Positions 10,795 to 56,594 of a DNA stretch of 64,000 nucleotides are shown here, in pieces. The DNA lies in the NCBI GenBank assembly GCA_000827325.1, contig KN832872.1, positions 2,466,096-2,530,095 on the forward strand, in the 5' to 3' direction. A program made the translations under genes and the position numbers. The notes below the pieces were generated by a model, which was not told the origin of the DNA, made no database searches, and was given only the letters and a program-made list of their open reading frames with translations. Every line of letters begins with the position of its first letter. The stretch's first letter is position 1. The stretch is from Oidiodendron maius Zn (taxonomy: Eukaryota > Ascomycota > Leotiomycetes > Myxotrichaceae).

Positions 10795-10908
10795 CCTCCG
10801 TCAGTCAAACTACCCTCCGTCAGTCAAACTACCCTCCGTCAGTCAAACTACCCTCCGTCAGTCAAACTACCCTCCGTCAGTCAAACTACCCTCCGTCTGT
10901 CAAATTAC
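10795..10908. repeat. Tandem repeat, 19-nt unit x6
   Basis: The unit is CCTCCGTCAGTCAAACTAC. Five copies are perfect (10795-10889) and the sixth is diverged (10890-10908). There are no spacers between units. Confidence 0.95.
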
Positions 10909-11106
10909 CCTGGTAACTTCGAAGTTAGCTATGTGCTGGCGGATGGCCGGATTCGTTTACCCGGGCCGCCGTTTACCCGAAGGCTGACTCAGAAAGCGTG
11001 AGGACAGGCATTCTGCTCAATGCCTGGATACCATGATGATGTTCAGTGAACAAATTTATCGCTCGTCGCCAACTAACAATAAGATCAGAAGCTCAGTCTC
11101 CAACAT

Positions 11107-34186: not shown

Positions 34187-34990
34187 TTTGCTAGCAATAC
34201 ACTCAAAAGTAGTATTGATTGACTGGAAACCACATTTTGTCATAGGTAGCAGAACAGTCGCTTTAAAGTCTGGACTGGCAACGGTATTCGGAATTGTTTC
34301 TCCACTAACCAGGCTGATTATCAGCTGCTATTCGTGAACAAAAAAATCATCATCCACGGGATCCATAGAGCTAGCATCGCTGACTGGGCGGAAATAAGGT
34401 TCAGCTTGTTGCTATCTACCAATACGGAGTGAGCGGCCTGCTGAATGAGTTCTTGACTTGGCATTCAGTTTCATTAGGGATTGATTGATTGATTGATTGA
34501 TTATGTCATACACTGTCCCAGCCTCCTTTAGGAAGCTATACAGGAATTCTATATAAGCAACTGACCCCATACCCTCTTTGACCCACTTAGCTGTTCATCC
34601 GTTACGCTTCCCGCAATAAATGGACTACTTGCTGTCGCTATCAATTCTGACCTCCATTATCGTCCTGGTGGTTGTTATACTACTAATAGAATCTATTCTA
34701 TAAAGCTGCAACTTTGTAGAATAGGTGAGGGGTTAGGGAGAGGCCTGTTCTATCTGTGGCTACTTAATAGAAACTAGTATCTGTCTTGTCTACTGTAATC
34801 TACTCTACTCTATATAGTGTTGTATAGTTATAGCTGTCTATAGATACCTTAAAGCTAAAGTAAGGGCCGGATTCAAATTTTCAGAATTTAGTGCCTGAGG
34901 CCAAAATAGTTGTATTAAATAGTCTTAAAGTCAAAGATTAATGAAATAGTTTCTAATATATAGTTCGACAAGTCGAACATATAGTAGTCT
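34187..34990. other. Intergenic, promoter of protease and edge of transposon block
   Basis: There is no gene. It contains a short TGAT microsatellite (34480-34502). Base composition becomes AT-rich from about 34.7 kb, which may be the 3' end of the LINE. Confidence 0.5.
34480..34502. repeat. Microsatellite (TGAT)n
   Basis: About five uninterrupted TTGA/TGAT units lie upstream of the protease gene. Confidence 0.9.
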
Positions 34991-35232
34991 ATTAGTATAG
35001 CGGTTCTTTAATGAAGTGATGTTTTCTTATATAGTAGTTAGTATAGACACTTCTCTGAATTGTTTAAGAAGACTAGTCTTTAGTATTATTTTGGCTGCTC
35101 TGATCGCTATCTTAGAGTCACTAAGCAGCCCTTTAAGGTTAAGTATTGGTCTTCTGCCTGCCTATAGGTCATGTCGCTCTGCTACCTACTCTCTATACTT
35201 TAGTAAGATATATTCTACTGTTTGGTTGCTAT
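34990..35232 (-). mobile_element. Tad1-like LINE, C-terminal end of ORF2 (segment 4 of 4)
   Basis: Read on the minus strand from 35232, the sequence encodes Y-S-N-Q-T-V-E-Y-I-L-L-K-Y-R-E, then W/Stop-V-A-E-R-H-D-L, then L-L-S-D-S-K-I-A-I-R-A-A-K-I-I-L-K-T-S-L-L-K-Q-F. This matches the region after RNase H in fungal Tad/I-type LINE ORF2 (T-V-x-H-I-L-L-x-C ... R-T-G-L-L-x-Q-F). It continues the frame that breaks off at 41974 on the other side of the LTR element. It is less mutated than the rest of the LINE. The 3' end of the element was not defined; it may reach about 34.7 kb. Confidence 0.65.
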
Positions 35233-35237
35233 ATCTA

Positions 35238-35583
35238 TGTAATAATAGCTTATACCTGGTGTTAGGTAAGTCGTTGAGTAGGTTGGGTAAAGCAGGGATA
35301 CCATCAAGTCAAGAAGTAATATATAGACTCAGTAAGTTACTAAAGTAGTAATAAGATACTTTATTTGAGTTAAGCATGAAGCTTCTATCTACTAAAGAAT
35401 ATACGCTGTTTATATAGAACCTTTATTGTCCTGGATTATCTAGATTATCTGGATTATTACCCTGATTCTAATGATTCCAATGATTCTATATATATTATAT
35501 AACCCTTCCTAGACTACTTACAAGGGTTCTCTATATAGACTATTGTCCGCTAAGCCTCAGGCCCTTGTTCTATATTTATAACA
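35238..35583 (-). repeat. LTR of Gypsy element 1 (3' LTR), lightly mutated
   Basis: This 346-bp LTR has intact TGT and ACA ends and is much richer in G and C than its partner at 41623-41968. Confidence 0.92.
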
Positions 35584-38500
35584 CTAGCCCCCTTCTAGCT
35601 AGCGTTGTCTTGATTGCTTAAAACCTAGAAGTAGTTCTTATTCAATCCCCTATACTTCTAATTCTTCCTTCATTATACTAGTGTCCTGTTACAAATATAC
35701 CAAGACTAACTGTTTAAATTTATATACTTGTATTTGCAAGAACGGAATTATTATACCCTCTTATACCTAGTATCTAAAAGCATCCCTCTATCTTTACTAT
35801 ATAGTATCTACTAACTCTAATTAGTATACCAAGTATATCTATATAGGTAGTAATATTTCCTGTAATGTTTAGGGTCCCTTTAAGGGCAATTAGAAGTATC
35901 TTGAATATACTAAAGAGCGGCTTACTACTGATTCTAATACTATAATAAATAAGCAGTAATAGTTACTAACAAGGCTTACTAAAGTAAATATAAAATTAGT
36001 TTAATTTGAAAAATAAAAGAAAATGTTTTGTTTTTATATTATAGAAATATTATATTATAGCCTAAAGTCTCTAGATAACCTAGATATAGTAGAAGTAAAG
36101 GAGGTATATAAGAGAGATAAGGCTTTACTATAGGCCCTTACTCTAACTAGCTCTACTAATATACTAGATAACCTGTTAGACTTTACTAGTATTACTTTTA
36201 ACTCTAATCTATCTATCTTACTTTCTTTCTAGGATTTGATTAATATTAGTAGAGAAACTTCTTTAAAAGCTCTAGACAGTTAAGGTTTTTCTCTAATTCT
36301 TATAAATTATCTGTCTGATTATATTCTTTCTATTTAATCAAGTATTCTTACTAATCTTTTATAGTTATTCTAATATCTAGGATTTTCTTAACTTTATATT
36401 CTTCTAGATTGTTTTCTAGTTAGAGTTTAGCTTATATTACTATTAGTATATCTCCCTTTACTAGTTCTAGTAAAGATATATAGAATATAGGATAGAGTCT
36501 AGAGTTCTTAAATAGCTATAGTTTATAATTAATAGATTTAATCTTTTCTAGAATTCTAAATAGTTCTAGTTTCTTAAAGTCTAGCTTACTACTTAATTGT
36601 TTAGTTTTAATATTCCTTTATAATAGATATACTTTATCCCTTTTTTTAGTAGAGATTCTATATTATACTTTTTATTAGTATTTATTATAGTTTACTACTA
36701 GCTAAATATAATATCTTTTATAAGCTATTCCTTTAGTTATTATAGCTTATTTATAAATACTCTAGATAGTTCTACTTTTTCTTTATCTTTTCTTAGCTAT
36801 CTATAAGTCTTTAGTTTATAGCTAAAGTTAGTAAAGAAGAGTAAAGTCTCTATTACTTTACTTTTTATACTATTATAAGTAAACTATATTAGTAGTAGCT
36901 ATTCTATCTAATTGTTTTATTTATAATTAATATAGTTTTTTAAATACTACTCTAAAGTTTAGTTTAATTGTTCTATTTAATTATCTATCTAAAGATAGAA
37001 TACTATTAATAGTTTATAGTTTACTTCTAGCTTTACTATAAGAGATTACTAGAATTTTAAGATAAATAGCTTATCTTTATCTAAGATTATTTCTTCTAGT
37101 AGTCTATATTAACTAAGAATAATTCTTAGGAATATATATATTAATTCTAGAGTATTACTGCTTTCTTTATAGAGTATAAAATATCTATATTTAGTTAATC
37201 TATCTATTACTATCTATATTAAGTTATAGATAACTTTAGTTATTAGTTCCTTTAATAATAGAAGTTTAATAATAAAATCAAAGGTAATAGATTTCTATAC
37301 TCTATCTAATATTAGTAGTAGTTATAGCAATCTATAGAATATATATTAGTTTATCTTACTTTTATTATATAAGATATACTTCTCTACTATCTTTTTAACT
37401 TCCTTTTTTATTTCTAGGAAATAATAGTCCTTTATTAATCTTTTGAAGATTCTTATAACTCTTTAGTATCTATATATAAGGAGTATATATTACTTCTATA
37501 TAAAGTTCTATTTTATTCTAGTTAGGATATAGATAAGTCTCTTAAATTATAATATACTCTAGTAATTAACTAGAAAGTCTATAGTTAGTTTCTTTATAAC
37601 TCTTTATATATTTTTATCTTTTATATATATACTCTTGATTATTTTCTTTAATTATATATCTTCTATAACTAAAATAGTAGCTAATAGTTTATAGTTATAT
37701 TCTATACCTTTATTATTAGCTTTTAATATTGCTTAGAGCTTCTCTATAGGTTTTCTAGTATAGTCTTATTATTAGTTTAGAGTATTAGCTCTAGTATTTT
37801 CTAATCCTTTCTTATATACTATAATAAAGTTATAGGCTAATAATACTTTAAACTATTAGACTTATCTTTAGTTTAGGATCTTAGTTATAGTAAATAAAGT
37901 AAGGTTCTTATAATCTATCTAGATCTATACTTAATATATAGATCCTTTAAGGTAAACTCTCTATTATTTATATATAATAACTATTACTAATAGTTCTTTA
38001 TTATATATATTATAGTTTAACTTAGCTAGTAATAGTTTATATAAGTAGTATATAACTAGTCTTAACTTCCCTTACTTATTGATTTATTTTAGATAAGCTC
38101 TAATAGTAAAGTTAGATATATCTATTTCTAGAATAATTTTCTATTTTAGATTAAAGATAGTAAGTATTAATACTTATATAAATTTATATTTAAGTATATT
38201 AAGGGCCTTTTAGACTATTTTATTCTATATAAATTTCTAGTTCTTTTTTATTAGTTTTATTAAAGGTACTATTACCTTTAAGTAATTCTAGATAAATTAT
38301 TAATAGAAGTTAGTAAATCCTAAGAAGGATTATATCTCCTTAATAGTTTATAGAACTAGCTATTTAAGGATAGCCTTTACTTTTTCTCTATTTATCTAGA
38401 TTCTATTTTCTTTAATAATATATTCTAGGAACTTAAGTTCCTTTTTATAAAACTTATATTTTCCTAGTTTAATTAATAGTTTTATTTACTTAATCTTATT

Positions 38501-41500
38501 TAGTATCTTTTTAATATATTTAATATATTTAGTTAGTATTTTAGAGAATATAAGGATATTATCTAAATAAACAACTATAAAGATATTAAGATATTTATAT
38601 AACTAGTTATTAATTATTTACTAATAGATTATAAGGGTATTAGTTAGTCTTTCTTATATAACTAGAGTCTTATAGAGGCTATAATAGATATAAAATACTG
38701 TTTTCTATTCCTTACTTTTCTTTATTTTTATTATATAATATACTCTATATATATTAAGACTTATAAAGTATTTAGTTCTTTAGAGTCTATTATATAATTT
38801 ATTAATTAGTAGTAGTATATATCTATCCTTAATAGTAATATTATTTAGCTATCTATAGTCTATATATAGCTTTACTATTCTTTTTTAGTATAAATAGAAC
38901 TAGATTTACTACTAATAATATAGATAGTTATATAAATCCTTTTATTAGATTCTTATTAATAAATTTCTTAAGAATCTTTAACTTCTTTTCTAATATTTAA
39001 TATAGTAGTCTAAAAGGAGATATCTTTCTAGACTTAATAGATATTCTATAATTCTATAGCTAGTACTTTAGAAGTATCTTGTTTATAGGTATTTCTTAGA
39101 ATAGTAGCTTATATTCCTTATATACTACTAGAATTTGCTTTAGTATAAAGACCTAGACTAGATCCTCTTTCTCTTTAGTAGTTATATATAACTACTTATA
39201 GAATAGAAGTTCTATCTTTTCTTTAAATACTATACTATTGCTTTTATACTAGTATTAGTTTATAGTAATATATTCTTCTATCTAGTTAATTTAGAGGTTA
39301 TAGAATTATAACTAAAGTATATTAAGTATTACTTTATAAGTACTTATAGTAATAATATTAAATTGAATCTCTTTAGTATATCTCTTTAATATAGTTATTA
39401 ATAATTTCTTAGTCTTATAGATTACTATTCCTTTATTAGATCTGATTTCTCCTTTATTAATAAAGAGTAGTTAATATAATACTTTCTTTTCTAAAGCCTA
39501 ATACCTTTTTTATATAACTATTTATATATTAATAAAGTTGCTTATTGTTTCTAAGTCTATTAATACTCTAAGTATTTATTCTTTTATAAGAATATTTAGG
39601 AAAATCTAGTATCCCTTTCTTACTATATTTAATTCTTTATATAGTCTTCTATAGCTTTACTAGTATCTTAATATAGACTTTCTTATATTAATACTAACTA
39701 GTTTTTTGACTTTATTCTAGCTTTATTAATATAAATTATTAAGGTTTAAGGTATTTTTATCTAATAGACTAGTTTCTTCTTTTTAGACTAATATTTTATC
39801 TTCTCTTTACTAGATTTATATATTATATATTTATTAGTATAATAAAAGCTTTAAGTAAGTTCTCTATATTAAGGGTAATTAATCCTTACTATATTCTTAG
39901 CTTTTCTATATTCCTCTAGCTATTATTCTATAAGTTTCTTCTTTTTAATTTATCTATTAAATTCTTGTTTTAGATAGAGTAGAAGATTGATATTTATAAC
40001 TAATTTATCTTAATATTACTAGCTTCTTTTAATATTTAGTTTTACTACTTTATCTATTTCTTCTATCTATTTCTTGATTATAAGTTCTAGATATATTATA
40101 TTAGTATAGTAGTACTTTATAGATTCTATAATATCTTTTATTTTATTAATTAATAGTATTAGATTCCCTTTATAATCTCTATATTATTTCTTGATTTGAT
40201 TTATTATATTATAGAAGTTATCTTTAGACTCTTTAAAGTACTTTTATATAGATACTAATCCTACTAGTATATAGATATCCCTTTTTTCCTATCTTATTAT
40301 ATTTAGTATCTTTTAAAAAGATATCTCTTTAGATTCTATTTACTCTTTCTCTAGCTTTAGATCTAGAGTTATCTATCTTTATAAACTCTCTAAGTCTTTA
40401 GTATCTAAAGAATTACTATTTATATTATTAACTTTTATTTCTATAAAATTAACTACTATTAGGCTTTATAAAATATACTTATAATTGTTTTTATTATCTA
40501 GGTTTATTTCTACTAACTCCTTTATCTAAATAGTCTAGTCTTTCTATCCTAAAGATAAGGATAATAATTAGAATACTAGTATATAGGTTTAAGTACTAAA
40601 AGCTCTTATAAAGCTTAATTTCTTATAAGAGCTAAATATTATTCCTATAAAGGAGATATTATATTCTATTAGTCTATTATAGCTACTATAGTTTATAGTA
40701 TTAACTTTATCTCTATATAGTTCTTTTTGTCTATTTCCTCTAGACCTATAGTTATATACTATATATCTAGGTTTTCTATATTAGAAGTATAATTTCTTCT
40801 CTATATAGTTTTATTATTTCTAGAGTAATAGTTCCTTTCTATATATAGTATTAAGTTCTATTAATTAAAGACTATAATAGTTTCTATAATTATACTACTT
40901 TTTAGAGGTTAGATTATAGAACTTTTTTTTCTTCTAGATTCTTTTATAGAATTAATTATTAATATATATAGTATCTTTAGTTAGCTCTTTAAACAAATTA
41001 AGGAAGTTTACTCTAAATAGTTTATTCTTTATAATCTCTTTTAGTCCCTTATAATATTTGTCTTTAAGTATTATATTATTCTATCCTGTTTTAATAGAAT
41101 ATCTATTAAACTCTATTATATATATAGCTATAGATCTCTTTTATTTTAGAGACTAGATCTTTCTAACTACTTATTTAATTTTATTAAAATCTCTAAAAGT
41201 ATAGTTAAGTCTTTCTAAAAATCCTTTAAAGGTTATAAAGATATAGTATATCTTTACCTTTATTTTAGCTATTATTTACCCTTATAGACTAGTATTAATA
41301 AGGTAGTTCTATATAAATCCTTTAATCTAGTTTAATACTTCTCTCTTAAAAAGAGTAATAGTATATAATACTCTTTTAATTAAAGAGATAAAATATTAAA
41401 TATAAAAGATTAGATATAAGTTTAGTTAAACAAGGAAGCCTTTAAGCTTAGACTTTTCTCTAAAGTAAACCTAAGGTATTTCTATCTTAATACCTTTATT

Positions 41501-41622
41501 TAGTAATCCTATAAATAGTTTAATTGTTTAGTATTTACTAGTAGAACTTTCTCCTTTAATAGAAAATATATTAACTTCTTAATAATAATAGTATATTAGT
41601 ACTTTAGAAAGAGTACTTAAAG

Positions 41623-41968
41623 TATAATAATAGCTTATATCTAGTATTAGATAAATTATTAAGTAAGTTAGATAAAATAGAGATATTATTAAGTTAAGAA
41701 GTAATATATAGACTTAATAAGTTACTAAAGTAGTAATAAGATACTTTATTTAAGTTAAATATAAAGCTTCTATCTATTAAAGAATATATACTATTTATAT
41801 AGAACCTTTATTATTCTAGATTATCTAGATTATCTAGATTATTACTCTAATCCTAATAATTCTAATAATTCTATATATATTATATAACTCTTTCTAGACT
41901 ACTTATAAGGGTTCTCTATATAGACTATTATCTACTAAACCTTAGACCCTTATTCTATATTTATAATA
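41623..41968 (-). repeat. LTR of Gypsy element 1 (5' LTR), heavily mutated
   Basis: This LTR is 346 bp and aligns end to end with 35238-35583. Nearly every difference is a C-to-T or G-to-A transition in this copy. Confidence 0.92.
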
Positions 41969-41973
41969 ATCTA

Positions 41974-42745
41974 TATATATATTTACTAGAGTCTATTTTA
42001 TTAATATTATAGAGATAGACTCTAAGGTCTATTTTTCTAGTTCTTATTTATATAATAATAGAGCTAATTATATAAAGTAGATTCTAATATATTTTAAGAG
42101 CTTTCTTGTCTAGTCTAGTATTAAGGGAGTAGAGAAAGTATCTATATTTCCTTTATTCTTAAATAGTTTTCTAGTTATTCTAAAGAGCTTTATTAATAAC
42201 TCTCTTAGCTATAGTAAGGAGAGTTTATATTCCTCTAGCTCTTCTATTATTCTAGCTTTAATTCTAGCTCTAGCTTTAGCTCTAGATCTAATAGCTCTTC
42301 TATAGTATTCTCTCTTCTTTAGCTACTTATTTAGCTACTAGATCTATTGCTTTATTATCTAGAATACTTTTATATATAGGTATCTATTAGAGCTTTACTT
42401 CTATCTCTAGAGTAATAACTTTCTATAGAAGAATAAATAGTTTCCTAAGTATATACTAGTCTAATATATTTCTAGGTTTATATATAGTTCTTAGAGTACT
42501 CTAATTGTCTATAAAGATAGTAGCCTTTTTATATTAAGGTTTAGAGTCTGTTTTAAGGATCTAGAGAGCTAGATAGACTCCTTATAGTTCTACTATATAT
42601 ATAGTACTTTTAGTATTATATTCTATATAATATATATATCTTTAGAGTATAGAGCTATATAAGGAGGTTAGTATTAGAAGAGTTACTATTATTACTCTAA
42701 TATAACTATTAATACTACTACTATCTATATATATATATAGTATAT
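41974..42745 (-). mobile_element. Tad1-like LINE, RNase H segment (segment 3 of 4)
   Basis: On the minus strand, starting at 42745, the sequence reads as a LINE RNase H domain: I-Y-I-D-S-S-S-I-N-S-Y-I (YTDGS-type motif with the first catalytic Asp), then T-I-Y-I-V-E-L-(stop)-G-V-Y-L-A-L (the A-E-L-Q-G-I helix with the catalytic Glu, Gln turned to stop). An A-R-A-R-I-K-A-R-I-I-E-E-L linker region follows, then (S)-L-A-L-L-L-Y-K near 42070. The frame is resumed at 35232 beyond the LTR element. Stops are almost all TAG/TAA at Gln/Trp positions, as RIP produces. Confidence 0.75.
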
Positions 42746-43674
42746 TATTAAAAGTCTATATTTAAATCACTAAAACTATAATTTTTTATATTTTATCTTT
42801 AACTATCTTTTAACTTAACTATACCTTAACTATCTAATATATCTAGACTACCTCTATATAAAGTATCCTCTAATTCTAAGAGCTAAGTAATTACTGCTTA
42901 TAAGTATAGTATTAAGTTTACTAATATTATATAAGGTAAAAATCTTCAACTAGGAATATATCACTAAATTATCCTAAATATATCAATTTAGACCTTCTAT
43001 ATTTCTTGACTATACTTAGAATACCTTGAATTAATTACTTTATATCTAGATAGATAGTTATTTAGAGTAATAGCTATTAATCTAAAGATTACTATAGCTT
43101 AATTATATATTGTAATTACTTCTAAGATCTTAAAGATTATAATCTACTAATATTTAAAGAAATCTAGTATCTAGAAATAGTACTATAAAAAGAGACTATT
43201 TCTAGATAATAAAAAGACTACTATATATCTTTAATAGATACTTAATTATAATAACTAGCCTCTTGAATACTAGTAATACTAAATCTAATCAGATAAGTAC
43301 TTAATTAAATATAGAAAAGAAAGCAAATAGGACTTTATATACTAAAGATAGAGTAAATAAAAGGTATAAACTTAAGGGTTTAATTACTTATATATTATTA
43401 TAGATAAAGGTTTTATACCTTAAGTAGTCTAAAAGAAGAGTATAAAGAATTAAACTACTATATTTTAGATAGTATTTAGATATAGTAAATATACTAAATT
43501 AGTTACTATATCTAGTAATCCTATATCTGCTTAAAGGGGAGTTTTAGTATACTAGTATATTAAGATTCTTAAAGAATATATACTAATAATACTTAAAACT
43601 AATACTTTTTTTATATATAATAATATATAGATATATATAATAATATTAGTTTAGGAATAGTTTACTAAAAGAGA

Positions 43675-45538
43675 TAACGTGCATGTATAGCGAGTTGTAA
43701 ATATAAGCAAGTTGTAAGTTTTTCAGTAACCTTATTATTAAAATTAATTATTATTTAACTATAATACCTTGAAATCAATTCCTACTATATATTTCTCCTT
43801 CTTTAGAGGCCTATATTACCTTTGATAAGTATGTACATTATGCCCTGCCTTATTACACTTGCTATAACGCCGAATACACGATTGTACCCCTTGGTCCTGA
43901 CTACCACTACTATCTATTTCATCACCCTGCTAGCCACCTATATTAGTTTGAGCTACTAAGTCCTCTACCTCCTATATAGAAAGTAATCCTCCTTTTTGTA
44001 GTCTGGTTTTTTTTAGCCTGCGACGCTTGCTAAGCCTCTCGTTTACCTCTTCAAGCTTAGTGATTTGAGATTGCAATAAAGCTACCTTATGTATAATTGC
44101 TACTGAACCCTTAGTAAATTGGTCTATAGCATCAATAGTCTATATTGGAGAGCTACCCTGATGGCAATTAATTCGGGTTTTAATGAAGGCAGACTGTCGT
44201 GAAGTATCGGTTGTATTCTTTAGGGTTATAGGGTTCCAGGTTTAGGCTATACTAGGATATAAGTTTAAAGGAGTCGGTGTTTTTGTATAAGGAGGGAGGG
44301 TATCCAGTACTCGCTAAGGGTCAAAAGGTACAATTCTAGTCCCCCTAAAGCCTCCCTGGATGTTTTGTATAGTTATTGACTCTTGGAATGCTACCTGGAA
44401 TGCTGGAAAGAAATCCTCCTTTGTAATATAGGTCTAACTACTATACATTAACCCCTTGATTTGCTTGCTGTACGCCTTTTTTAATGGACTAAAACAGCCT
44501 ATATCAAGTGGCTATAATATATGAGAGGAGTGAGCAGGTATACAGAATGTAATAATATTGTGGTCCTGGCAGAAAAGCTCAAATTCAGTCAAGTGGTGGG
44601 ATTTATGGCCATCAAGTATTAGGAGTCGATATCTATCCACTTTTCGAGGCTGTATATATAATTCAAAGTGCTTAATCCATTCTAGGCTAATCTTATTTGT
44701 AGTCTACCTATTATCACTTATAGAGAGCCTCTAATGCTTTAGTAATTTGAATTTATTGTACTAGGATAGTAGGATATATATACCCTTTATAACTATAAAT
44801 GGCGGCAGTGACTAGCCAAGTGCATTTATAGCCTGGATTACTGTAACCTATTCGCGATTACTAGGCTGCTTTGCCTTTGCCTTACTAGACCTCTCTAAGC
44901 TTGTAACCACTATTGCTGTTAAGATAATGCCTATTATAAACCCAGTCTTGTTAAAATTATAGATATCCGCGTCCATGATCCTATACTTTATAATTGTGTT
45001 CTATATAAGGGTAAACCACTCGCTAATAAGCTTTGGATCTTTGTATTTCGCTCTTTGATAGTCATATTTTCGATTAAAATGTATAGTAAGCTGTAGTTAT
45101 CGTTTTATAAAGTTTGAAGCCTAGTGTATTCTGATGCGTCCTGTATTTCGCTCAATAAGCAGACGATTAGCTATATCTTCAACACTACAAAGCCTAGGTG
45201 GAAACCCTTTAGAATCAAGGTCAAGAATATATTAGACAATCACTAATTCTTCTGAATCAGTAAGCTTTCGAGATTTAGGTTGAATATCGCGTCGTGCAGG
45301 TATTCCATGGCTCCGATCGCGTAATGTAGTATAAGGTATATTATAGACCTTTGTAGCCTGGTAGAGATTAATAGCCCTAGGTGGTTTGATTGCTTGAAGG
45401 GCTAAGAGTATTCTGCTTTCTTGAGAAACTGACTCCATGATTTTTGGTTAAGATATTAGATTTTAAAGTAACAGGGTCATGATTCTTAGAAAAACTTACA
45501 ACTCGCTTATATTTACGACTCGCTATACATGCACGTTA
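43675..45538 (-). mobile_element. Fot1/pogo-type DNA transposon (1860 bp plus TA duplications)
   Basis: 47-bp terminal inverted repeats (43677-43723 and 45490-45536, outer end ACGTGCATGTATAGCGAGT) differ at only two positions, both transitions. TA target duplications flank them. The element retains normal G and C content and CpA/TpG dinucleotides, unlike the surrounding sequence, so it arrived later or escaped most RIP. It splits the Tc1/mariner element. Confidence 0.93.
43759..45438 (-). pseudogene. Fot1/pogo transposase, decayed
   Basis: The gene runs from ATG 45438 to TAG 43759. It opens MESVSQESRILLALQAIK, then V-Y-N-I-P-Y-T-T-L-R-D-R and P-K-S-R-K-L-T-D: the two N-terminal HTH modules (psq type plus start of the CENP-B-like one). 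After the first stop the same protein can be followed through K-Y-D-Y-Q-R-A-K, I-Y-N-F-N-K-T-G-F (Y-N-F-D-E-T-G-F with the first catalytic Asp and Glu lost), L-L-I-L-D-G-H-K-S-H (second catalytic Asp present), H-S-S-H-I-L-(stop)-P-L-D-I-G-C-F and a C-terminal zinc-knuckle-like C-x-K-A-G-H-N. Several TAG/TGA codons fall at Gln/Trp sites. It cannot be active. Confidence 0.88.
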
Positions 45539-45950
45539 TTAATATAATAGATTATCTGTCTTTTTTACTAGATATAAATCTAATCAAGAACTTATAGAAA
45601 ATACTTAAAGCTAAGATAATTAAATTATATCTAAAGCTTATAACTATAAATAATAATAATATAACTAGACAATTCTTAATTAGAGTAGTAAAGGAGATAT
45701 AAAAGCTACTTAAAGAGAAGCTTTTAAATAAACTTATATTAGAGATATAAAAGAGGATTAATATACTTAAAGCTATAAAAGGATAGTATACTAAATATTA
45801 GACAATTAAAATTAAAGGGATTTAGTTAAGTATTTGATTTATATTAATATTAAGTAACTAGCTAACTAATTAGTTAAGTTATAATTAATTTAATTGAATT
45901 TAGTTACTCTAAAAAATATAGGGGATTTACTTAAATATAGACTTTTAATA

Positions 45951-46033
45951 ATCTATTATAGTTTATATTATCTATTAAACAGATATTCTAGTAGTATAAT
46001 ATAGCCTCTTTAGATATACTATCAATTACAACT
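45951..46033 (-). mobile_element. Tad1-like LINE, short middle segment (segment 2 of 4)
   Basis: These 83 bp lie between the Tc1/mariner element and the left target duplication of LTR element 2. Read minus, they join the segment ending at 52567 to the RNase H segment starting at 42745 with one mutated stop. Assignment to the LINE is by position rather than by motif. Confidence 0.5.
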
Positions 46034-46038
46034 ACTAG

Positions 46039-46267
46039 TATAATAAACCTAGCTAGATTAGTTAGTAGTTTACTAGTATAATAGTAATTATACTTTTATA
46101 GGTTATCTAATAAGCCTCTTTTATATATAAGAAGCTCTACTCTTATTCTCTTCTTTACTCCTTAACTTATTCTTTTAGTTATCTTAATTAATAGTTGAAT
46201 ATACTTTATATTTAGTACTATACTCTATTCTAAGGATCTAGATCTCTATTCTTTCTAAGCTATTATA
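46039..46267 (+). repeat. 5' LTR of Gypsy element 2
   Basis: This LTR is 229 bp, the same length as 52333-52561, with matching ends and matching ACTAG duplication outside. Confidence 0.9.
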
Positions 46268-49200
46268 TAAGAATAAGTTTAATAAACTTTCTAAAGATAG
46301 AGTTTAAATATATCTCTCTCTTTTATATTAAACCTACTATATTAAATAGATCTATAAAGCTATAATATAATATTCTATAAGCTTACTTTAACTAGAAGTT
46401 AAATAGAAGAGATATTAGATTAGAGCCTTCTATCTATTACTATCTTCTCTAGCTTCTCTTGATTAAGTTAAGCTAGCCTTTCTTAAGAAGAGCCTAAAAT
46501 ACCAAGCCTTTATTATTAACCTCTATATTAGTAATAATATCAACTATATAATATAAGCCTATAGATAAAACAGCAGCTATCTAAAAGATAGGAGAATCCT
46601 CTACTTACTAGGAAATATCTCCTATATAGTCTAAAGACTCTATCTTTAAGTTCTAGCTAATTGATTTAGACTCTACTTAAAATCTAGAACTAAAGGTATA
46701 TTTAAATTAGAGCTTATTAAACTTTATTAGATCCTTAGTCTAACTAATAGATAAGTAGTTTTAGAGTCTTCTAGTATAGTTTCTAGCTAAAGATCTAAAA
46801 ACTAGTATACTAGATATTTAAAAACCTCTTTATTATCTATTAGAAGATCTAGATAACTCTCCTTCTAATAGCTTCTATAGATCTTATTAGGATTATAGCT
46901 CTAGATACTACTAGTATAATTGAAGCTACCTATAATCTATAAAGTATTCCTTTAAGTATATAGATTTTATTAAGCTTAATAATAGTATTTTATCTATCTA
47001 TATTATATAGTAATCTCTTCTATAAGGAAAACTATATACTAATATAGACTAATAGTCTATAAAATAAGACTAGATTAATTATATCTTTAGTTATATTAAA
47101 GGTAAGACCTAAAGCTTTCTAGAACTAAGGATTAATAAAGATAGTCTAGATCCCTAGCTAACTATAAACAAGATACTAGAGTATTTAAATATAGTCTTCT
47201 AGAACTACTTTAAGACTAAATAGTTAAAGAACTCTTTTTATACTTTAAAGTATTCTCTAGAGTAAGACTTTAATAAATTCTATACTAAATTTATATATCT
47301 AGCTTTAGTAAAAAGGGTCCTCTCTATTATATAGTAAAGTTATTTATAGTATAAGCTAAATAAAGAGTTTAAGAACTAGCTTCTAGCTATATACTACTAA
47401 TACTCTATATACTAGAAACTAGTATATAAGTACTAAAGACTAAATATTAACTTTAAGAAACTTTACTATTAATTTCTACTTATAAGTTAGGTCTAGTATT
47501 ACTAGTCTAATCCTATAGCTATATAATCTATAAAACCTAGTAGTTCTACTATATAACTACTCTTAAGTATACTACTAGTATCTAGATATTTATATAGACT
47601 ATTCTAAGCTTTATCTATAGTTAAGAAAAGAGATTTATTAACTCTAGGTTCTAGAGTATCCTCTATACTAGTAACTAATCTATTAAAAGTATCTTACTTT
47701 AACTATAATAAAGTAGAGTATTTTACTAGCTCTTATTTTAACCTTTATACTATACTAAGAATTAATAAGATTAAATAAGATATTAAGGTTTCTAGTAATA
47801 AAGCAAATAATAAGATTAACTCTAAATCTAAGTTAGAAAACTAGAAGCTTTAAGTTAAGGCTCTCTCTTTAGAGTCTATATATTTAACCTCTAGTAGATT
47901 AATTTAAGTTTATTAATAGTAGGTAATTTCTTTACTCTTATATATATACTCTATAAGGATAGAGTTATAATCCAAGCTAAAGCTCTTAGTAATACTAGAG
48001 CTAGTAGCTATATTTTCCTTGATTTAAGATTTATATTAGACCTTTACTATACTTTTAATTTAAAGTCTAGACAACTTCCTTAAACTATCTACTCTAAGGG
48101 ATTTAATAGTAAGAAAGAATCTCTAATATCTTAATATCTCTTGTTTAATATAGAGATTAATAGCTATAGGATCTATAACCTTCTAATACTAATTATAAAG
48201 CTAGACTCTTATAATATTATTATTAGAAGGAATTTCTTTGATTATTTCTATATTTCAATTAATGTTTATAACTAATAGCTATAGTAGTCTTAGGAATTTC
48301 CTTCTAATAAAACTTACTTATAAACTATTACTATATATCCAAGAAATAAGATTAGGCTTTAAAAGATCTAGCTATAATATTAGTAAGATATATTTAAAAG
48401 AGACTATCTAATTACCTATAATAAGAGAAGATATAAGGATAGTATCTAGATTAAAGCCTTAATAAAGGATCTAGCTAAAAGGCTGCCTTTTAATTACTTA
48501 ATAGCTAGCTAACTATCTAACTAATAATTTAATCTAGTTATCTAGGAAAATCTAATAAGCTCTCTAGTACTTTAAGATAGAACTATCCCTCTAGAAGCAA
48601 AGGCTTATAGCCCTATATAAAAGTACTAGAACTATAAAAACTTAGAATAGATAGAATAAAAGTTGAAAGGTCTTAATAATCTTTATCTAGCTATATTAAA
48701 CCCCTCTAAAAAGCAACTATTAATCTAGAAAGTAAAGCTATAAGCTAAACCTTCTCTAATAATTAATATTAAGATAATTTTAGATAATAGATTTATATTT
48801 AATATAAGATAATCTAATATAGAAATGTTTTTGATTACTCTAGATAGTTTAGACTATATAATCAAGGATAAAGAATAGAAGTCCTAGCCTCTACTAGACT
48901 AATTAATTAAAGTACTAAAGTAGAAAGTATCTAGTTTCCTATATTACTATTTAGACTTCTTTTTAAAAGAGTAATTTAATATCCTACTACTATCTTATAG
49001 TATTAACTACTAGATTAAGCTAACTAATAATAGTAAGAACTTAGAGTTTAGTTATTTAAGTAAGTACTCTATAGAGAAGTTTACTACTATATATTACTAT
49101 TTAATAAATAGCTTAGTTAAAGGATTTATTATAGTAAGCTAAATACTCTTTATATCTTTTATTCTCTTTATATAAAAGAGTAATAGCTCTCTATATTTCT

Positions 49201-52200
49201 ATATAGACTATTATAAGCTTAATATACTAACTAAAAAGAACTAATATTCTTTACCTTTAATTAATAAGACTCTAGTATAACTAGCTAGAGCTAAAGTATT
49301 TATTAAGCTAGATATTTAATAGACTTTCTACTAGATCTATATCTCCTTTAAATCCAAGAAGCTAACTATATTCTAGATATATTATAGGCTATTTTAATAT
49401 AAAGTCTTTCTCTTTAGACTAACTAATAGACTAGCTACCTTTTAGAGCTATATTAATAATATATTAAGAGACTTCCTTAATATAATCTATATAGTTTATC
49501 TAAATAATATTCTAATTTACTCTAAAGATAAGCTTAAATATAAAGTATATATTAAGTAGATAGTTAATTATCTCTAGATTATAGACTTATAGACTAATAT
49601 TAAGAAATATAAGTTTAGTATTAAATAGACAAAATATCTTAGCTTTATTATTTTAACTAATAGTATCTAGATTAACTTTAATAAGATCTAGATAATCAAG
49701 GACTAGATATACCTTTATACTATTAATAGTATCTAATCTTTCTTTAGGTTTTATAACTTTTACTATAGGTTTATCTATAACTATAGCTAGATTATTACTC
49801 CTCTAACTTATCTAACTTATAAGGATTATAAGTTTAATTTTAACTAGTTCTATATCTAGATATTTAAGACCCTTAAATATATACTAATAAGTATATCTCT
49901 TCTAGTCTATTATAATATAGATAGTTAATATCTTCTAGAGATAGATATATCTAATATAGTAGTTATAGTAGTATTCTTCTAGAAGAGACTTAATAGAGAA
50001 TAGTATTTAGTTAGATACTTCTTAAAGACTATAGCTCTAGTTAAGATAAACTACTTAATCTATAATAAAAAGATACTAGCTATTGTCTAAATATTAGAAT
50101 ATTAGTATATAGAGCTAGAAGGAACTAAAGACTAGATCTAGATTATTATAGACTATAAGACTTTTAAGTACTTTATATCTATTAAACTACTCTTAGTTTA
50201 TTAGACTAGATAAATAGAGATTCTTTTATAATATTACTTTAAAATCTTATATAAGCTAAGTAAATTAAATAAAGTAGACCTTTTAATATAATTTAATAAG
50301 AAAGTTTTAAACTAGATAAAGTATAATAACTAAAAGCAGGTTTTATTACCTTTAGATTAATTAGATCTATAGATTATATAGAAGCTAGAAGTAAACTAGA
50401 TAGCTCTTTTTCTCTTACTAATTATAGAATAACTAGACTTAATTAATAAGATCCTTTAAGTAAACTAGACTATATCTAAACTAAAGCCTATATATAAGCT
50501 AGCTATAGACTAGAAAAGAGAATATACCTTTAAGAATAGATTACTTAAAAGATATAGTAAGCTAGTAGTAGCTGAATTAGTTTATATAGATCTAATTATA
50601 GCTATATACTATAGTCTAGCTATAGCCTATTTAGACTAGAGTAAGATAAAGGCTTTAATTAGAGTAAGATACTACTAGATAGAGATAGACAATAATATAG
50701 ACTACTTTATTAATAATTGCTATATCTACTATAAATTAAAGATCCCTTAAGATAAGACTCTAGAGCTATTATACCCTTTACTAATACCTGATTAACTATA
50801 GTAATATATCTTAATTGATTTTAAGGATATATCTTCTAATTAAGATAGTATAAATATAGTTTATATCTTTATAGATAGACTAGATAAGAGACTAGTTTCA
50901 ATACTCTATAATAAGTTAGTAGATACTTAAGTAATAGTTTAGCTTTACTTAAAGTATATATATAAATATTATAGACTAGTAATAACTATAGTCTTAGATT
51001 ATAGTTTATAATTTATATTAGTATTCTAGAAAGAGTTTTACTAACTACTAAATACTAAATTAAAGCTTTCTATAGCTTATTACCTTTAGACTAATAGATA
51101 GACTAAGAATATAAACTAGTAGATTAATTAATAGTTAAAACCCTTTATTAATACTTTCTAGAATAACTAGTCTAGTTTAATTAATATAGTTGATTATATA
51201 GCTATAACCCTTTTATATAACTTAATAGGATTATTATCCTTCTAGATTAAGTTAGACTACTAGCTATAAATAAATATTAACTAGAATTATCTATAGGATA
51301 ATATTATAGTCTTAGAATATATCTATAAGGTAAGGTAGGATATCTAGAAGCAGATTAAGAGGATCTATAAAGTCTAGAAGTAATATAGAGATAGTATAGC
51401 TAAGGCTTAGAAGAAGTAATAGATCTAGGCTAATAAGTACTATTAATCTATAGACTTTTAGATAGAAGATAAGGTATAAATATTAATAAGGAACTAGATA
51501 AGTAAATACTCTAGTTAAAAGCTAGAGTATTAGAATAAGAGTCTATATAAGATTATAGAGCAAGTTAGATACTTATATTAGCTTAAGCTATTAGATAATA
51601 ATAAGTAGTATAATATATTTATACTAGATCTCTTATATAAGGATCTAGAGAACCCTCTATTAGAGTAATATTAAGAACCCTCTCTATCTATAATATATAA
51701 CTAGAAGTAGAAGTAGAAGGTTAACTAAATACTCTAGAGCTATAAGAAGTATTAGAAGCTCTAATACTAGACTAAATAGAAAGGTATTAATTATAACTCT
51801 ATATTTTATAATATTAAGAGTTTTAAAGAGACTCTATATAAGATTAAAGCCTTCTATAATTAATACTTAAAAGCTATAGAATCTCTAGTAAACCTAGAAT
51901 ACTAGCTAGACTATTATAAATAAAGTAAAGAACTAGAAAACTATCTAAATAATAATGTTTATACTAATATATATTAAGCTTAATCTAGCTATAAAAGGCA
52001 AGAAAGGACTAACTTCTAACTACTAGAGCTTATACTTATTAGTAACTAAAGTATATAGAAGCTAAGTCTCTATAAAGTTAAGCTATAGCTTTAATCCTAG
52101 CTCTAGTCCTAGCTCTCTACTATTATACTAGACTATTAACTCTATAGCCTTTACTCTCTTTAGAACTATTACTGTTTAATTATTACTACTATTTAAAGTT

Positions 52201-52332
52201 TATTATTATTCTATTTTTATTATTAGATAACCTTTAATTATTACTTAATTCTTATTTCTAGTTACTTTCTATTACTACTAAATTGACTTTTATTATATAG
52301 CTTAAGAGTAAGCTTCTAAAAGAAAGGAGTAA

Positions 52333-52561
52333 TATAATAAACCTAGCTAGATTAGCTAGTAGTTTACTAGTATAGTAGTAATTATACTTCTATAAGTTAT
52401 CTAATAAACCCCTTCTATATATAAGGAGCTCTACTTTTATCCTCTTTTTTACTCCTTAACTTGTTCTTTTAGTTATCTTAGTTAATAGTTAAATATACCT
52501 TATATCTAGTACTATACTCTATCTTAAGGATCTAGATCTCTATTCTTCCTGAACTATTATA
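52333..52561 (+). repeat. 3' LTR of Gypsy element 2
   Basis: This 229-bp LTR is preceded by a purine-rich tract and followed by ACTAG. Confidence 0.9.
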
Positions 52562-52566
52562 ACTAG

Positions 52567-55500
52567 TAGCTTCTACTAGAGTATAATAATATATAGATAT
52601 TAGTATTCTAAATTAATATAGCTGATTTTATAATATATCTATAGTATTTTAGTATAATAATATAAAGGGCTTTTCTTAGAATCCTTCTAGTTAGATTTGA
52701 TTAATTTATATAGTAATAAAGATACTATATATAGAGTAGTATAGAGACTAGCCTTTTCTATCTATTAGTCTAGAGGTATAAAGTATACCTTAATTTCTAT
52801 AGTATTTGCTATAATAGTATAGAATACTCTTATAATAATTTAGATAGCTTGTCTTTATATAGAAACTAGGAAATATACTATTCTAGATTTATTTATATAT
52901 AGTTTTCTAGATAGATAATATAGTCTAGTTCTATATTATATCAAGTATCTATATAGTATCTAGAGTAAGATTATAGTCTAATATACCTACTAGAGAGTAT
53001 TAAGATTAGTACTCTATATTAAGGATATTATAGAGAATAGTATAGTAAGCCTCTTAATAGCTCTTTATTATATATACTATATATAGTCCTTCTATTTAAG
53101 CTTATTATCTATCTATATATCTAGATATCTATAGAATAAAGTAGATATAATTATAATNNNNNNNNNNNNNNNNNNNNNNNNNNNNNNNNNNNNNNNNNNN
53201 NNNNNNNNNNNNNNNNNNNNNNNNNNNNNNNNNNNNNNNNNNNNNNNNNNNNNNNNNNNNNNNNNNNNNNNNNNNNNNNNNNNNNNNNNNNNNNNNNNNN
53301 NNNNNNNNNNNNNNNNNNNNNNNNNNNNNNNNNNNNNNNNNNNNNNNNNNNNNNNNNNNNNNNNNNNNNNNNNNNNNNNNNNNNNNNNNNNNNNNNNNNN
53401 NNNNNNNNNNNNNNNNNNNNNNNNNNNNNNNNNNNNNNNNNNNNNNNNNNNNNNNNNNNNNNNNNNNNNNNNNNNNNNNNNNNNNNNNNNNNNNNNNNNN
53501 NNNNNNNNNNNNNNNNNNNNNNNNNNNNNNNNNNNNNNNNNNNNNNNNNNNNNNNNNNNNNNNNNNNNNNNNNNNNNNNNNNNNNNNNNNNNNNNNNNNN
53601 NNNNNNNNCTTTTAGAGTCTAAGTATTATATTATATTATAGATTCTATAGCTAGTAGAGATATATCATTAATATATTCTACTATACTAACCTTTATACTT
53701 ATATATTCCTTTAGAAGGTCTATATTATAGAAGAGATAAAGGATTAATAATAGTAGGGAACTCTATAGTATACTAGTATAGACTTTAGATACTTATATAG
53801 TATACTCTAGTAAGACTAATATTATAGTATAGCTAATAAGGAATAAATTAATCTATTTTATAATCTTTAGATTAATTTTCCTTACTCTAAGATTATATAG
53901 TAACTAGAGATAAGATATATTATTAAATACTTTAGAGATATTAAGTAGTAATAGACTAGCTACTTCCTTATACTTCTAGACCTTATAGATCTTCTTAAAC
54001 AATAGATAGATAGTATATTCTATAGATATTATCTTCTATCCTTTAATATATATTCTTAAGAGGAGATTATATTAGTTAGTTAAGTATATAAGTCTAGTAC
54101 TAATAACTATCTCTAGTACCTTTTTAAGAGTATTTAAGAGAGTAATTAGTTAGTAGGATTTAGATATAGAATAGTCCTCTTTTTCTAGCTTCTTTAGAAC
54201 TACTATAATAGATTAGTAAAAGTATTAGAGGAAGTATTCTAGATTTAGGCTAGTATTAAATAGCTAGTATAATATTAGAAGTAGTAGATCTAGCAATTTT
54301 TATAGGATACTATTTGTAATTCTATTAGTTCTAGATACTTTATTAAATACTATCTTTTAGATAGCTCTCTTAATCTTTACTTCTATAATTAAGGGATAAT
54401 AATAAACTATTAAGTATTTATAGTCTAGTATATCTAAAAGGTTAGTATTAACTAGTAGCAGAAAGAATATCCTTATTAATAGATCTATCTTTATCTCTAG
54501 AGTATTTACTAGAAAGCTATTAGGTCTAATAAGAGATAAAGTAATAGTTACTATTAGAGTATCCTACTAGTATACTACCTACTTAGTAATCTTCTATAGA
54601 CCCTTAGATAAAGATACTACTTCTATTACTTTATCTTAATAGGTTTATTAAAAGTATTTACTAATAAGTCTACCTTTATAGTTCTAGACTTTTATATATA
54701 TCTACTAATCCTTATCTAGTCTTAAAAGCTACTATTACTATCTAAGTTACTATATCTTTATATAAGTTTATTTATAATCTTTATTAAATCCTAAGATTAC
54801 TCTTAATAAGGGATTATTCTAAGGAATAGATATATTAATAGTTTTAAGAAGGGTTTAAATAAGTTATATTATAATCTTATCTAGGCCTTCTAGAGTACTT
54901 ATAAAGATATTAAGCTATTATAGTTACTGAATTCCTGTCTTAACTATAGCTTTTATCTTTTTGATATCTATAGTAGTCTAGTTATAGGTCCTATATCTAG
55001 TAGCTTCTCTCTATTCCTAGTTAAATTAGATACTTATTAGAAAGTAGTCTAAGTTATAGTCTAACTTATAGATAATCTTATAGTATATAAGCTATTCTCT
55101 TAATATATATATTATAAAAGCAAGGTTAATAGTAGTATTACTATTATACTAGTAGTAAGTCTTTATACCTCTAGATATTAATTACTATAAGTAAGAGATT
55201 TTAGTAATATTAAAGAGAGTATATACTTTATAGAATAGTTATTACTACTATATTCTAGACTATTATAGATAGTAGAGATTAAAGTCTCTAAAAAGTAGAA
55301 TATAGTTTTTAGGGTTCTCTTTTTTTAATTCCTTTTCTAGAATATCTAGAGTTTAAGTTATTAATTCTGTTTATAGTTTATTATATATATTATAGATCTA
55401 AAGATATCCTTATTAAGTTTCTATCTATAGTATATAGATATCTTTATTAATATATTTAATATTCTAGATACTAGAGTCTATTCTTTTACTAATAAAGAAA

Positions 55501-55745
55501 CAGGTTCTAGTAGAGTTGCTATTAAAGTAGAGAAAGTAAAAGCAGTCTTTAGTAGGATAGTAGGTTATAGTCTAGAAATAGTTTCAAAATAGTTCCTATA
55601 GTACTAGTATATTATAGTTATAGGTTTCCTAGAGGCTAAATAGATTAGCTATAATAGTATCTCTAGATTTTTAGATATTATACTATAAGATACTTAGAGA
55701 ATTGTTATTATAACTTATATCAAGCATTAGAGGTAGTGCTTTAAG
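52567..55745 (-). mobile_element. Tad1-like LINE, endonuclease and reverse-transcriptase segment (segment 1 of 4)
   Basis: On the minus strand the apurinic-endonuclease domain can be read from about 55520: F-F-I-S-K-R-I-D-S-S-I, then K-D-I-Y-I-L, and L-D-I-L-E-K-E-L-K-K-E-N-P-K-N-Y-I-L-L-F-R-D-F-N-L-Y-Y (the L-G-D-F-N-x-H-H motif, near 55255-55330). The reverse-transcriptase region follows; its end (around 53100-52650) has the Q-R-A-I-K-R-L and F-x-T-x-x-x-A-L-E layout of fungal LINEs. The 451-base gap falls inside the RT. Stops are at Gln/Trp codons. The 5' end is placed where composition returns to normal, near 55745. Confidence 0.75.
53158..53608. other. Assembly gap (451 N)
   Basis: This is a run of 451 undetermined bases inside the LINE reverse-transcriptase segment. 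Its true length is unknown. Confidence 1.
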
Positions 55746-56594
55746 TGCTAGATACTATAGTAGTTTATAATTTTCATAGCTATCGTGTTTCATACCTATA
55801 GACTGAAAGCTTGACCTTCCTCAGGAGGTCCTCGTTCCTACTATACACAGCTTCCGAGCGTGGTTCGGCATAAAGTCCTTCCGAGTAGACCCAGTGATCC
55901 AACGTGACGCGATCCTGACAGTAGTGCCTTGGTTGCACCACCTTAGATGCACCGCCTGGCCCAAGGAGGGAGGATATGCGGTCTGCAGCGATGCCGCGAA
56001 GTGGCCGAGAATAGGTACATATCGAGGGAATGCCCGCCTACTTACCAGGCTATCTAGGTTGTTACTCTCTTTTCATCTAAATATTGCTGCCAATTACCCC
56101 GATTCAGAATTGTCCCTATTATCGATCTCATCGGTCATCTGCATTTCGGTGCTATTCACTCTCACTGTACTTAAGACAGTCCAAGTGCGAAGCAAAAATT
56201 TAAGCTATTAATATTCTAAACTTGCTAGCAAAAGTTCAGATGCTTGTAAATAATACGAGGTAGCCTAGGAAAATTCCACACATATAGTAACGAAGTGAGT
56301 TCGGTCAGATTATAAATTGATTGAACTACGAAGAAGAAAAGAGAGATGCTAACTACGTGCCAGAGGAATACTCTCTGTAGGGCCAAACTAGTACAGGAAG
56401 AGTATACAAGGAATCGGAGGACGCGAATAACGTGCGAACTTCGAAATAGATCCTTACAAAATTCAATGAGCGACCTAAGATCCAATCACCAATGCCGTTC
56501 TGCATTACAATGCAGACGGGCCAGTAGGCGTCGCACACTAGCTGCCTACGTCCTGCGCAGGTAGCAATGACGAAGCGACTGTATGTCCCAAAAT
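55746..56594. other. Intergenic, right border of transposon block
   Basis: Composition returns to normal here. A 105-residue plus-strand frame (55894-56211) starts with GTG and has no family features; no gene is called. Confidence 0.5.

What the first reader, a model, noticed from the sequence alone, without database searches (positions are those of the whole stretch)
34990..55745. Four-element transposon nest with footprints that restore reading frames
A minus-strand Tad1-like LINE is interrupted by two LTR retrotransposons and a Tc1/mariner element, and the mariner by a Fot1 element. Each insertion has readable ends: ATCTA and ACTAG duplications, equal LTR lengths of 346/346 and 229/229, TA duplications for both DNA transposons. 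Removing each insert with one duplication copy lets the LINE and mariner proteins continue. This gives a relative insertion order: LINE first, mariner and LTR elements next, Fot1 into mariner later.
Basis: partly seen in the sequence, partly recalled or inferred. Interest (0 to 1): 0.75.

Follow-up and report, generated by a model that had tools for sequence, protein, structure and literature searches.

The report
Nested jumping genes in a fungus
Five transposable elements are nested at one spot in a fungal genome; sister copies elsewhere in the genome are uninterrupted at the same points, and the pattern of mutations suggests that the innermost element arrived last.

Summary
A minus-strand LINE (about 34479-55765, some 510 bp longer on the left than reported) is interrupted by two LTR retrotransposons and a Tc1/mariner-like element, and the mariner by a Fot1-like element: five elements, four insertions. 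LTR lengths (346/346, 229/229) and duplications (ATCTA, ACTAG, TA, TA) check out. Sister LINE and mariner copies in the same genome run straight through the insertion points: 21 of 22 comparisons fit best with exactly one duplication copy kept and no gap. LINE before mariner before Fot1 follows; the LTR elements cannot be ordered against the mariner.

LTR1's two LTRs differ one-sidedly (49 of 50 differences), because load falls towards the block's left edge. The buried mariner lost 55% of its C/G, ten other copies 0.6-13%. Nested clusters in RIP-prone fungi are known; this is a well-resolved new member. A 451-base N run cannot be read.

The parts
34479..35237 (-). LINE piece 1 (3' end with a GATT-repeat tail), ends with first ATCTA copy; lightly mutated
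   Evidence: aligned with L037-L039; 80 of 343 reference C/G lost, measured from 34480
35233..35237 (.). target-site duplication ATCTA, copy 1
35238..41968 (-). LTR retrotransposon 1 (Ty3/Gypsy-type; RT, RNase H, SH3, chromo in this order on the minus strand)
35238..35583 (.). left LTR of element 1, GC 0.33
41623..41968 (.). right LTR of element 1, GC 0.19
41969..41973 (.). target-site duplication ATCTA, copy 2
41974..42737 (-). LINE piece 2, ends with mariner TA copy 1
42736..42737 (.). TA duplication of mariner, copy 1
42738..45958 (+). Tc1/mariner-like element, split by Fot1 (about 1.36 kb without it)
43675..43676 (.). TA duplication of Fot1-like element, copy 1
43677..45536 (-). Fot1/pogo-like DNA transposon with DDE_1 transposase, GC 0.366; 27 stops in the frame read end to end
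45537..45538 (.). TA duplication of Fot1-like element, copy 2
45959..45960 (.). TA duplication of mariner, copy 2
45961..46038 (-). LINE piece 3, 78 bp, ends with ACTAG copy 1 (46034-46038)
46039..52561 (+). LTR retrotransposon 2 (probably Ty3/Gypsy; only RNase H domain matches)
46039..46267 (.). left LTR of element 2
52333..52561 (.). right LTR of element 2
52562..52566 (.). target-site duplication ACTAG, copy 2
52567..55765 (-). LINE piece 4 (5' part; 5'-truncated compared with L037-L039), holds the N run
53158..53608 (.). unreadable N run, 451 positions; 128 bp expected from three LINE copies

Best explanation
A 5'-truncated LINE (endonuclease-RT-RNase H type) landed between genes of a fungus. 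Two LTR elements and a Tc1/mariner-like element then inserted into it, each leaving its own duplication (shown by anatomy and sister copies). The block was saturated with C-to-T / G-to-A changes, weaker towards its outer edges (pattern shown; repeat-induced point mutation, RIP, as the cause inferred). A Fot1-like element inserted into the already mutated mariner afterwards and has since been lightly hit (inserted into the mariner: shown; afterwards: inferred from its much lower load).
For: Sister copies without the inserts: 21 of 22 comparisons best at exactly one duplication copy, zero gaps (alignments). Collinear LINE pieces in L037, L038, L039. LTR pair differences are all transitions, 50 of 50 and 21 of 21. 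Loss of C/G against the least mutated copy used: LINE piece 2 0.51, the two readable parts of piece 4 0.54 and 0.50, mariner 313 of 571 = 0.55, Fot1 112 of 781 = 0.14 (piece 3 not measured). RIP index (CpA+TpG)/(ApC+GpT): mariner pieces 0.16 and 0.23, LINE piece 2 0.08, Fot1 0.93, gene flanks 1.18 and 1.20 (the 78-bp LINE piece gives 0.38, LINE piece 1 0.85). LINE copy L039 carries endonuclease, RT and RNase H. DNA-methylase-family matches in the genome: five, at four places, compatible with RIP enzymes but not assigned.
Against: L038 at the mariner point fits best with one extra base and has 3 gaps, and at the LTR1 point shows one gap with 60-bp flanks. No convincing duplication flanks the LINE itself. 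The Fot1 timing assumes that a repeated element present during the mutation phase would have been hit; the other mariner copies are lightly hit, so escape is possible in this genome. First displays of two joins used coordinates off by one or two bases and showed gaps (Fot1, mariner); they were set right from the TA and inverted-repeat positions.
Confidence: 0.93

Rival explanations
1. The block is a patchwork of unrelated repeat fragments that happen to lie side by side; the duplications are chance matches in AT-rich DNA.
For: AT-rich DNA gives short chance repeats (one search lists several); LINE and mariner pieces have no direct Pfam match.
Against: Three full and one partial LINE copies and eleven mariner copies elsewhere run through the points with one duplication copy, 21 of 22 without a gap.
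Confidence: 0.02
2. Fot1 was already inside the mariner when the block was mutated but escaped, so it did not arrive after the mutation.
For: Ten other mariner copies lost only 0.6-13% of C/G, so elements can escape here; Fot1 copy L030 keeps GC 0.358 between flanks of 0.338 and 0.319.
Against: The mariner pieces directly on both sides lost 55% of their C/G while Fot1 lost 14%; Fot1 copies L027 and L028, in AT-rich surroundings, lost 261 and 325 of 781.
Confidence: 0.08
3. The buried mariner is heavily mutated because it is older than the other copies and saw more sexual cycles, not because of its surroundings.
For: Transversions are too rare to date it; 0 in 936 still allows an age difference. 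Mariner copies L041 and L044 have AT-rich flanks (L041 right flank GC 0.279; L044 0.375 and 0.332) yet are lightly hit.
Against: No transversion against 9 of 11 copies in the left piece (two of these nine only partly aligned) and 10 of 11 in the right piece. Across 11 other Fot1 copies element GC follows flank GC (Spearman 0.82, p 0.002), although the same test on 11 mariner copies is not significant (0.44, p 0.18).
Confidence: 0.38
4. The lightly mutated left LTR and its neighbourhood come from gene conversion by an unmutated copy, not from an edge effect.
For: Only one end of LTR1 is light.
Against: The light zone also covers the adjoining LINE piece 1 (0.23); the LINE's other end in the window is lighter too (0.31 and 0.32 in its last two bins, 157 bp), and so are the 3' end of L038 and the outermost 3' bins of L037.
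Confidence: 0.12

Closest known systems
Nested TE clusters of Mycosphaerella graminicola (PMC4522978; abstract and passages seen)
   Same: TEs inserted in TEs, 5-bp duplication of an LTR element, in a genome with RIP-like mutation; 78 putative clusters, one of 47 kb; one element there has identical LTRs that escaped although its inside is mutated
   Different: Here sister copies without the inserts and mutation load are used to order the steps, and one LTR of a pair was largely spared rather than both
Neurospora RIP of euchromatic versus heterochromatic repeats (PMC11969663; abstract, outline and passages seen)
   Same: Chromatin state changes how repeats are mutated, a possible cause of the contrast between the buried mariner and other copies
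   Different: Experimental system; no nested block in what I saw; chromatin at this locus is unknown
Tad1-type LINE, Fot1/pogo, Tc1/mariner and Ty3/Gypsy elements of ascomycetes (recalled)
   Same: Domain content, terminal repeats and duplication type
   Different: Placement within these groups was not tested with reference elements

Membership tests
Tad1-type LINE | Endonuclease, RT and RNase H in one element (features as recalled) | tested here: met
   L039 copy: PF14529 2.5e-12, RVT_1 7.4e-24, RNase_H 4.3e-11, same frame, in that order, stops read as X
Tad1-type LINE | Upstream ORF1 | tested here: inconclusive
   No Pfam match upstream in L039, though an open run of 285 codons lies there
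Tad1-type LINE | RT grouping with the Tad1 clade | not tested
Ty3/Gypsy LTR retrotransposon (LTR1) | Matching LTRs with 5-bp duplication; RT, RNase H, integrase, chromo order | tested here: met
   order RT, RNase H, SH3_Tf2-1, chromo; RVT_1 and Chromo score below their cut-offs, domains lie in two frames, no integrase match
Ty3/Gypsy LTR retrotransposon (LTR2) | Gypsy domain order | tested here: inconclusive
   LTRs and duplication met; only RNase H domain matches found
Tc1/mariner | TA duplication, terminal inverted repeats | tested here: met
Tc1/mariner | DDE transposase | tested here: inconclusive
   DDE_3 in copy L040, E 2.2e-5, 24.8 bits against cut-off 28.6; window pieces none
Fot1/pogo | DDE_1 transposase, terminal inverted repeats, TA duplication | tested here: met
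   DDE_1 2e-25; inverted repeats 96%; TA at both ends
Fot1/pogo | Grouping with Fot1 within pogo | not tested
   No reference Fot1 protein compared

The most novel reading that the evidence does not exclude
A transposon nest behaves as one mutation domain: RIP load is set by being inside the block and by distance from its edge, not by element identity. The same mariner sequence is saturated inside (55% of C/G lost) and far less touched in ten copies elsewhere, and one LTR of a pair is spared only because it lies near the edge. Entry into a nest would then be what condemns an element.
Probability: 0.35. Interest if true: 0.5.

Novelty: new member of a known kind. Interest (0 to 1): 0.3.

Why it matters
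It is a compact record of four insertions and a mutation episode in partly readable order, with internal controls: uninterrupted sister copies in the same genome. It warns that LTR divergence cannot be used as a clock in such blocks: all 71 LTR differences here are transitions, and 49 of the 50 in LTR1 run one way. It offers a test of whether RIP works on blocks rather than on elements.

Tried and rejected
Direct Pfam scans of the window's LINE and mariner pieces found nothing, so sister copies were used. Ordering mariner against LTR1 and LTR2 by mutation load was given up, because their interiors are mutated to a similar degree. LTR-based dating was rejected because the differences are transitions only. 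For a duplication around the LINE, only short, badly placed shared words were found in the window; the same script found none for L037-L039, but it used the window's truncation point there, not their true 5' ends, so that says nothing. Mariner GC against flank GC in 11 other copies is not significant. Of 12 further mariner matches 11 were fetched; the twelfth, 114 bp, was not. That the other mariner copies lie outside nests was not checked beyond 1-kb flank GC. and one search are capped lists. Paper searches; two searches returned nothing. I saw no report of load set by position in a nest in the listings, but only four papers were opened, for passages or outline, so absence is not claimed.

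Full report
What was checked. The window is part of an unnamed 45.9-Mb genome (58 contigs). A block from about 35.2 to 55.7 kb has GC near 0.2, against 0.46-0.47 in gene-bearing flanks. Ten flanking ORFs were scanned; matches include an amidase, ABC-transporter domains, DUF7600 with a weak F-box, DUF3632 and a HET domain, which fits an ascomycete (inference).

Ends. LTR1 is 35238-35583 / 41623-41968 and LTR2 46039-46267 / 52333-52561. Lengths are equal within each pair and the 5-bp flanks identical, ATCTA and ACTAG. The Fot1-like element is 43677-45536 between TA copies. The mariner's ends are blurred by mutation and were placed by comparing 11 other copies: 42738-45958 between TA copies.

The LINE. 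Searching the host genome with the right LINE piece found three copies besides the window. The middle stretch (LINE piece 2 plus mariner) found the same three, a partial fourth on C40, and 12 further mariner matches. Fetched with flanks, L037, L038 and L039 carry LINE pieces 1, 2 and 4 in one order and orientation without the inserts; L038 has a break inside piece 1. Piece 3 is too short for that listing except in L039, but 60 bp of it align in L037, L038, L039 and L051. The other three copies continue beyond 55765, so the window copy is 5'-truncated. L039 shows endonuclease, reverse transcriptase and RNase H domains in one frame; that frame carries stops of its own.

Sites without the inserts. 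Short flanks of each insertion were compared with the sister copies while 8 fewer to 8 more bases were kept. LTR1: 3 of 3 copies best at exactly one duplication copy; LTR2: 4 of 4; mariner: 3 of 4 (L038 prefers one extra base and has 3 gaps); Fot1: 11 of 11. All 21 best fits are gap-free. With 60-bp flanks L038 shows one gap at the LTR1 point. First displays of the Fot1 join and the mariner join were off by one or two bases and showed gaps; they were corrected from the TA and inverted-repeat positions. This is stronger evidence than reading frames, and chance is no longer a workable explanation. That frames are restored is supported only in the sense that the joins are gap-free against relatives.

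Families. LTR1 lies on the minus strand with RT, RNase H, SH3 and chromo domains in Gypsy order, in two frames, RVT_1 and Chromo below their cut-offs. LTR2 lies on the plus strand and shows RNase H domains only. The mariner family is read from L040, DDE_3 below its cut-off. Fot1 has a clear DDE_1 match. The names Tad1 and Fot1 within their larger groups were not tested.

Mutation load. Differences between LTRs are transitions only: 50 of 50 and 21 of 21; in LTR1, 49 of 50 have C/G in the left LTR and T/A in the right one. LTR2's differences are two-sided (14 and 7). Against L039 the window lost 0.23 of C/G in LINE piece 1, 0.51 in piece 2, 0.54 and 0.50 in the two readable parts of piece 4, falling to 0.31 and 0.32 in the last two bins (157 bp). 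LTR1 is light for its first 0.6-0.75 kb and heavier further in: L053 and L054 are more mutated than the window in that zone, while L056 shows no such contrast (three of the five fetched LTR1 copies were profiled this way). The light zone thus spans the LINE end and the LTR1 end and follows the block's edge rather than one element. The LINE's 3' end is also light in L038 and in the outermost bins of L037, so part of the effect may be general to repeat ends.

Two contrasts. First, the buried mariner lost 313 of 571 reference C/G (reference L047); ten other copies lost 0.6-13%, one of them (L050) measured over 173 positions only. Transversions against it are zero in 9 of 11 copies in the left piece (L040 has 1, L048 has 7; L049 and L050 aligned over 484 and 392 positions) and in 10 of 11 in the right piece (L048 has 6). 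So some 250 to 310 RIP-type changes separate it from the fully aligned, otherwise matching copies with almost no other substitution. Second, Fot1, flanked on both sides by this mariner, lost only 112 of 781 against its nearest copy L026 and has an index of 0.93. The simplest reading is that Fot1 came after the main mutation phase.

Order. LINE before mariner before Fot1, and LINE before LTR1 and LTR2, follow from nesting. Mariner against LTR1 and LTR2, and LTR1 against LTR2, cannot be ordered.

Mechanism. RIP is inferred from the change type and its one-sidedness. DNA-methylase-family matches exist at four places in the genome (five matches) but were not assigned to RID or DIM-2. Why the block is hit so much harder is open. 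Fot1 copies support an effect of surroundings (Spearman 0.82 over 11 copies without the window, 0.71 with it). Mariner copies do not reach significance (0.44 without the window, 0.57 with it, p 0.055), and L041 and L044 are lightly hit despite AT-rich flanks. Whether those copies lie in nests was not examined. Work in Neurospora reports that eu- and heterochromatic repeats are handled differently by RIP (PMC11969663, abstract seen), which would fit.

Known ground. Nested clusters in RIP-prone fungi are described, for example 78 putative ones in Mycosphaerella graminicola (PMC4522978, abstract and passages seen). This is a new, well-resolved member of a known kind. The part worth following is the block-wise and edge-graded mutation load, for which one block is only suggestive.

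Noticed in passing
53158-53608: Run of 451 N inside the LINE; three other LINE copies have 128 bp between the same flanks, so the gap size is arbitrary or hides 323 positions more. Not probed.
   Followed up: partly
35238-36100: One LTR and about half a kilobase of its element are lightly mutated while the other LTR is saturated: load follows the edge of the block.
   Followed up: yes
42738-45958: Mariner family with 11 further long copies, most with no transversions against this one: looks like a recent burst, with the copy in the nest the only saturated one of those examined.
   Followed up: partly
10795-10911: Tandem array, 19-bp unit, about 6 copies, 97% matches.
   Followed up: no
60258-61976: HET-domain (heterokaryon incompatibility) ORF about 4.5 kb from the block's right edge.
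   Followed up: no
12611-17595: ABC-transporter domains in separate ORFs on the plus strand, perhaps exons of one gene.
   Followed up: no
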